Shown here in pieces: positions 34,313 to 34,420 of a DNA stretch of 64,000 bases (positions are counted from its first letter, which is position 1; each line of letters begins with the position of its first letter). Origin of the DNA: Bacteroidota bacterium. Its GTDB lineage: Bacteria; Bacteroidota; Ignavibacteria; Tepidaquicellales; Tepidaquicellaceae. A program made the translations under genes and the position numbers. The notes under the pieces are model-generated. The model saw only the letters and a list, made by a program, of their open reading frames with translations. It was not told where the DNA came from and made no database searches. The DNA is taken from NCBI GenBank assembly GCA_018266835.1, contig JAFDZP010000002.1:1277302-1341301 (forward strand), given 5' to 3'.

Positions 34313-34420
34313 GGGGCGCCCTCCACGAACCGGAGGTTCGTACGTCCAAAGCGAAGAATTGAAACTTCGATTCTTCGCTTTGCGCGTGTCCCGATTTTTA
34401 ATCGGGACGGAGGGCACCCC
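34313..34420. repeat. 108-nt three-hairpin (multi-branch) palindromic element
   Basis: An outer stem GGGGCGCCCTCC (34313-34324) / GGAGGGCACCCC (34409-34420) has 11 of 12 pairs. It encloses three perfect hairpins: ACGAACC/GGTTCGT (34325-34341, loop GGA); AAAGCGAAGAAT/ATTCTTCGCTTT (34348-34359 with 34370-34381); and GTCCCGATT/AATCGGGAC (34388-34396 with 34400-34408, loop TTT). Hairpins 1 and 3 abut the outer stem with no spacer. It is much more GC-rich than its surroundings. It could be a compound REP/MITE-like element or a structured RNA. Confidence 0.75.

What the first reader, a model, noticed from the sequence alone, without database searches (positions are those of the whole stretch)
34313..34420. 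108-nt closed multi-branch element with three perfect hairpins
Seen: an 11/12-bp outer stem encloses three perfect hairpins of 7, 12 and 9 bp. Two of them directly abut the closing stem, so nearly every base is paired, as in a four-way junction. The GC content is much higher than the flanks. Inference: it is either a compound mobile palindromic element (REP/MITE-like) or a structured RNA. The lack of a protein frame and the symmetric design make chance very unlikely.
Basis: seen in the sequence. Interest (0 to 1): 0.7.

Follow-up and report, generated by a model that had tools for sequence, protein, structure and literature searches.

The report
Cloverleaf DNA element with self-matching arms
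A short non-coding DNA element that can fold into a perfect four-armed cross occurs 29 times in two related bacteria; its arm sequences differ from copy to copy while the base pairing stays almost perfect, in a way that points to DNA rather than RNA as the form that is kept.

Summary
Window 34313-34420 folds into a closed four-way junction; no shuffle folds as well. It belongs to a family: one covariance model finds 13 places in this genome and 16 in the other held species of the genus, none in 27 further genomes of the family. All 29 copies have an outer stem and exactly three hairpins; 19 of 29 have no unpaired junction base. Arm sequences differ widely, yet 1339 pairs are Watson-Crick against 18 G-T and 18 A-C; that symmetry argues against an RNA. 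Of 70 three-base loops, 52 are GNA on one strand, the type that stabilises DNA mini-hairpins. Five of seven compared sites are occupied in one species only; two are occupied in both, with different arms. No target duplication or REP tag and no Y1 transposase in this genome was found. Best reading: a dispersed DNA element inherited as a fold, its arms corrected by hairpin-templated copying; how it spreads is unknown.

The parts
34313..34324 (+). outer stem, 5' side (GGGGCGCCCTCC)
   Evidence: pairs with 34409-34420 in MFE on both strands; GGCG-type foot shared by most copies
34325..34341 (+). arm 3 (in family orientation, which is the window minus strand): 7-bp hairpin, loop GGA on the + strand closed by C-G
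   Evidence: same arm GAACC-NNN-GGTTC in 10 of 29 copies; GNA triloop
34342..34387 (+). arm 2: long central hairpin, 3-bp foot + 2x2 mismatch + 13 perfect bp + apex
   Evidence: sequence differs in nearly every copy; the apex AATTGA..TCAATT is shared by 16 of 29 (this copy carries a variant of it)
34388..34408 (+). arm 1: 9-bp hairpin GTCCCGATT-TTT-AATCGGGAC
   Evidence: GTCCCG..CGGGAC in 20 of 29 copies
34409..34420 (+). outer stem, 3' side (GGAGGGCACCCC)

Best explanation
This is one copy of a genus-restricted family of dispersed, non-coding DNA elements of about 100-125 bp. Their conserved property is a fold of single-stranded or extruded DNA: an outer stem closing three abutting hairpins, i.e. 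a cloverleaf four-way junction, mostly with GNA triloops. SHOWN: copy number, fold, compensatory change without wobble, strand symmetry, loop type, occupied and unoccupied sites. INFERRED: the selected or copied form is DNA. The arms stay perfect because one side of each hairpin is re-copied from the other during replication (template switching), which also flips loops. New copies arise by movement of the folded DNA with an enzyme supplied in trans. The enzyme and the step of movement are not identified.
For: 13 places in the own genome and 16 in G015 with one covariance model; all 29 have exactly three branches and 19 have no unpaired junction base. In the six copies used for the model, 97.1% of 280 cells are paired, with 61 double changes against 1 one-sided change; 0 of 500 shuffles and no slid control comes near (the alignment was laid out by structure, but each copy folds so on its own). 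Over 29 copies: 1339 Watson-Crick, 18 G-T, 18 A-C. 52 of 70 triloops are GNA or its complement, against 11 of 37 triloop hairpins of 8 bp or more outside the elements. The same stem with an inverted loop occurs for five stems, a pattern that template switching predicts (passages of PMC8794818). Sites: W, a1744 and a1133 without the element in G015, b11_82 and b41_171 without it in G000; a857 and a843 occupied in both with different arms although flanking genes align at about 73-80%.
Against: No target-site duplication above control (mean 1.90 against 1.83); no clean empty site, because intergenic DNA has diverged. No transposase partner found; the 4.1 kb between two copies in G015 holds ordinary genes. 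No two copies are near-identical (best 84%), so no recent burst is visible. Gain and loss cannot be polarised with two species. Template switching is inferred from pattern, not observed; loop inversions may partly reflect uncertain orientation of some copies. Copies share ancestry, so loop counts are not independent (15 of 26 distinct loop/closing-pair types, P about 5e-8).
Confidence: 0.55

Rival explanations
1. A fixed cis-acting DNA site: the extruded cruciform or its GNA hairpins are bound by a protein (nucleoid, replication, repair or a hairpin-reading enzyme), and selection for binding, not copying errors, keeps the arms paired.
For: Conserved tips and foot with free middle of arm 2; GNA-type loops closed by C-G in 26 of 52, the type required for hairpin extrusion at phage N4 promoters (passages of PMC4496689); two sites kept in both species.
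Against: Five of seven compared sites are not shared between two species of one genus; no fixed gene context (13 --, 6 ++, 6 -+, 3 +-, 1 undetermined of 29); pairing is kept even in stretches with no sequence conservation.
Confidence: 0.25
2. A REP/REPIN or MITE-like element moved by a Y1 (RAYT/IS200) or DDE transposase.
For: Dispersed, intergenic, palindromic, patchy occupancy. G015 has four Y1_Tnp matches.
Against: No Y1_Tnp match in this genome; no GTAG or CGTC (or complement) within 6 bases of either end in 29 of 29; no target duplication; no near-identical copies. DDE transposases were not searched.
Confidence: 0.1
3. A structured RNA (riboswitch-like or small RNA) with a four-way junction.
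For: Very stable fold and many compensatory changes.
Against: G-T pairs are only 18 of 1375 and equal in number to A-C, i.e. to G-T on the other strand; loops are mostly three bases and GNA/TNC in type; no fixed orientation to genes; no Rfam match in the window at gathering thresholds.
Confidence: 0.07
4. A pile-up of ordinary terminator-like palindromes that happen to nest.
For: The genome is rich in simple hairpins; the b11_82 site in G000 carries a terminator-like hairpin instead.
Against: Four arm motifs counted are absent from 425,357 bases outside the elements; genome-wide, 20 of 26 GTCCCG..CGGGAC places lie in elements; fixed count of three branches in 29 of 29; no T-run at most copies.
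Confidence: 0.03

Closest known systems
REP / REPIN elements with RAYT transposases (PMC3733652: abstract and passages read; PMC3116915: abstract read)
   Same: short intergenic palindromes, dispersed, stems with complementary changes, short loops, proposed ssDNA intermediates
   Different: single or paired hairpins of 20-40 bp with an unpaired GTAG/CGTC tag; here a closed junction of three arms, no tag, no Y1 transposase in this genome, arms of nearly every copy different
Repetitive hairpin-forming elements / double-hairpin elements of mitochondria (PMC2800124: abstract and sections 20 and 22 read)
   Same: dispersed, non-coding, hairpin-built, restricted to close relatives, no known enzyme
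   Different: there stems are reported as conserved and loops vary; here stems change wholesale while staying paired, and the loops fit one type
Template-switch-maintained hairpins (PMC8794818: passages read)
   Same: parallel changes on both sides of a stem and loop inversion
   Different: described there for RNA genes; here a dispersed DNA element with three arms at once
Phage N4 virion RNA polymerase promoters (PMC4496689: passages read)
   Same: small DNA hairpins with a three-base loop, C-G closing pair, G first and A last, extruded by supercoiling
   Different: single hairpins on a phage genome read by a phage polymerase; no such partner was sought here

Membership tests
REP/REPIN (GTAG or CGTC class) | unpaired GTAG or CGTC tag at one end | tested here: not met
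   0 of 29 copies have GTAG, CTAC, CGTC or GACG within 6 bases of an end
REP/REPIN (GTAG or CGTC class) | associated Y1/RAYT transposase in the genome | tested here: not met
   PF01797: no match in G000; four in G015
REP/REPIN (GTAG or CGTC class) | single 20-40 bp hairpin, alone or as dimers | tested here: not met
   29 of 29 are closed three-arm junctions of 99-139 bp
MITE | terminal inverted repeats | tested here: met
   outer stem of 6-12 bp in 29 of 29 as folded
MITE | target-site duplication | tested here: inconclusive
   no excess over shuffled flanks, but intergenic DNA is too diverged for a clean empty site
MITE | shares termini with an autonomous transposon in the genome | not tested
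   only the 4.1 kb between two G015 copies was read; it holds ordinary genes
Structured RNA | strand-specific covariation with tolerated G-U pairs | tested here: not met
   18 G-T against 18 A-C among 1375 pairs
Structured RNA | transcribed | not testable with these tools
   no transcript data
Known Rfam family | match at gathering score | tested here: not met
   0 matches in the 64-kb window

The most novel reading that the evidence does not exclude
A mobile element inherited as a shape rather than a sequence: a folded single-stranded DNA cloverleaf recognised by its junction and GNA loops, in which whole arms are rewritten while both sides change together, so that copies at the same site in two sister species keep the fold but not the sequence.
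Probability: 0.35. Interest if true: 0.85.

Novelty: new variant of a known kind. Interest (0 to 1): 0.66.

Why it matters
Dispersed bacterial palindromes are usually recognised by sequence. This family is recognisable mainly by a fold, with about 46 Watson-Crick pairs per copy kept while the letters change. It gives a natural test bed for whether template switching or selection on extruded DNA keeps long palindromes perfect, and it warns that covariation alone does not prove an RNA: strand symmetry and wobble counts must be checked.

Tried and rejected
Rejected: structured RNA. REP/RAYT membership. Terminators (no T-run at most copies; no convergent-gene bias). An autonomous unit between the two close copies in G015.

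Led nowhere: protein look-up of the neighbouring 96-aa gene in genome contigs (no relative). The model found only the two records L125 and L183 as real copies, plus one weak match, L179 at E 0.062. One search folded all 128, but its output was cut in the middle. The both-strand alignment (A3) was not used for counts, because most copies enter twice. Literature searches for a described family of this architecture listed none; only the held open-access library was searched.

Limits: the phylum search scored only 10 candidates per genome (395 genomes), so absence there is weaker than in the family (137 per genome) or order (90 per genome). In that same phylum search 10 of the 13 own places were recovered. 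The pair a5_370/b42_54 lies beside the same orthologous gene but about 400 bp apart and inverted; it was left out of the site count as ambiguous. The other copies (8 of 13 in G000 and 11 of 16 in G015, this pair included) were not compared with the sister genome by a search of their own.

Full report
Check of the observation. The sequence at window 34313-34420 is as described. It folds on both strands into an outer stem that closes three hairpins, with z-scores near -10 and no shuffle of 200 as good under RNA or DNA parameters. The long arm has 13 rather than 12 perfect pairs above a 3-bp foot. GC is 0.574 against about 0.29 on either side. Nothing in the window reaches an Rfam gathering score.

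A family, not a one-off. A DNA search of the own genome found diverged relatives whose arms have other sequences but the same layout. A motif search and an end-to-end pattern brought the set to seven. Six of them were laid out by structure and made into a covariance model. The model finds 13 places in the own genome G000 and 16 in G015, the only other held genome of the genus. It finds none in 27 other genomes of the family at E 0.1 and none in the other 42 of 44 genomes of the order at E 0.001. A sample of 395 genomes of the phylum gave G000 alone, with stricter filters. G015 is very probably the MAG 'Bacteroidetes bacterium isolate SZAS-86' (JAFDZO01): two pattern hits there lie on contigs of exactly the same length as G015 contigs C44 and C8 and score the same with the model (against 21 and 23).

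Architecture. Each of the 29 copies, folded alone, has an outer stem and exactly three branches; 19 of 29 have no unpaired base at the junction. In 20 of 29 one arm carries GTCCCG..CGGGAC, in 10 of 29 another carries GAACC-NNN-GGTTC, and in 16 of 29 the long arm has the tip AATTGA..TCAATT. None of these occurs in the 425,357 bases of the two genomes examined outside the elements. Genome-wide, the first palindrome has 13 places in each genome, 10 of 13 inside elements in both. Of the six others, five were folded and one, and none was seen as a closed three-arm element. The middle of the long arm is nearly free in sequence.

DNA, not RNA. In the six model copies 61 cells show changes on both sides and one shows a change on one side; shuffled and slid controls are far below. 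Because that alignment was laid out by structure, the independent folds matter more. Over all 29 copies I took the union of pairs predicted on the two strands: 1339 Watson-Crick, 18 G-T, 18 A-C. An RNA under selection should favour G-U on its own strand. Compensatory change in RNA is commonly held to pass through G-U (passage of PMC8794818). The loops agree: 70 of 87 arms have three-base loops, and 52 of those 70 are GNA on one strand or the other. In hairpins of 8 bp or more outside the elements 11 of 37 three-base loops are so. Relatedness inflates this, but 15 of 26 distinct loop and closing-pair types still fit (P about 5e-8). This copy itself has the GNA loop in arm 3 only; its arm 1 loop is TTT. 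GNA triloops are the ones reported as extraordinarily stable in DNA mini-hairpins (title seen in the reference list of PMC7432603; the original was not read; PMC5815330 passages, also describe d(GNA) triloops as stable). At phage N4 promoters the closing C-G pair and the G and A of the loop are needed for hairpin extrusion under supercoiling (passages of PMC4496689).

Turnover. Seven sites could be compared between the two species. The window's own site, a1744 and a1133 lack the element in G015; b11_82 and b41_171 lack it in G000. Two sites, a857/b22_115 and a843/b22_137, are occupied in both, between genes that align at about 73 to 80%, but with very different arms. One further pair was ambiguous and left out. 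No copies are near-identical; the best pair is at 84%. In close pairs the long arm is replaced in blocks on both sides at once. For five stems the same stem occurs with a loop and with its reverse complement, as template switching would give (PMC8794818 passages). Orientation is uncertain for some copies, which weakens the loop argument.

How it may move. There is no excess of flanking direct repeats and no GTAG or CGTC tag, and no Y1 transposase match in G000. The 4.1 kb between two copies in G015 holds ordinary genes. So a partner in trans is inferred, not found. A fixed protein-binding cruciform is the main rival.

Standing. It resembles REP/REPIN and MITE elements in being short, dispersed and palindromic, and mitochondrial hairpin elements in being hairpin-built and lineage-restricted, but it fails the REP defining features tested. 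I found no description of this architecture in the searches named under Tried and rejected. I call it a new variant of a known kind; the shape-inherited mobile element is the bolder reading.

Noticed in passing
window 34144-34191: A separate short intergenic repeat: stretches of it match seven places in G015 at 83-91% identity.
   Followed up: no
window 23880-24050: Cluster of simple strong palindromes (CCCCCTCCTT..AAGGAGGGGG and GTTGGTC..GACCAAC types) of kinds repeated in both genomes.
   Followed up: no
L077 5001-5120; L081 5001-5125: In b41_171 a hairpin sits inside the stem of arm 1, and in b19_22 one arm holds a second hairpin: possible hairpin-in-hairpin insertions.
   Followed up: no
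L082 5001-5139: Copy b1_72 keeps outer stem, arms 1 and 3, but arm 2 is an 83-nt, poorly paired stretch: a decaying or filled copy.
   Followed up: no
L116, L120, L127, L129, L164: Five pattern hits in one genome, Pelagimonas phthalicica; the two seen in full, L116 and L127, share a GTCCCGAG..CTCGGGAC hairpin followed by CCCCGGGATATTT: perhaps an unrelated dispersed palindrome.
   Followed up: no
L077 about 5130-5700: A stretch next to copy b41_171 accounts for most of 44 matches in G000 (mostly 64-85% identity), probably a shared protein domain.
   Followed up: no
L083 2543-2756: The G015 site matching a1744 lacks the element but holds several other hairpins, one being GTTCCGACGC..GCGTCGGAAC, like an arm on its own.
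   Followed up: partly
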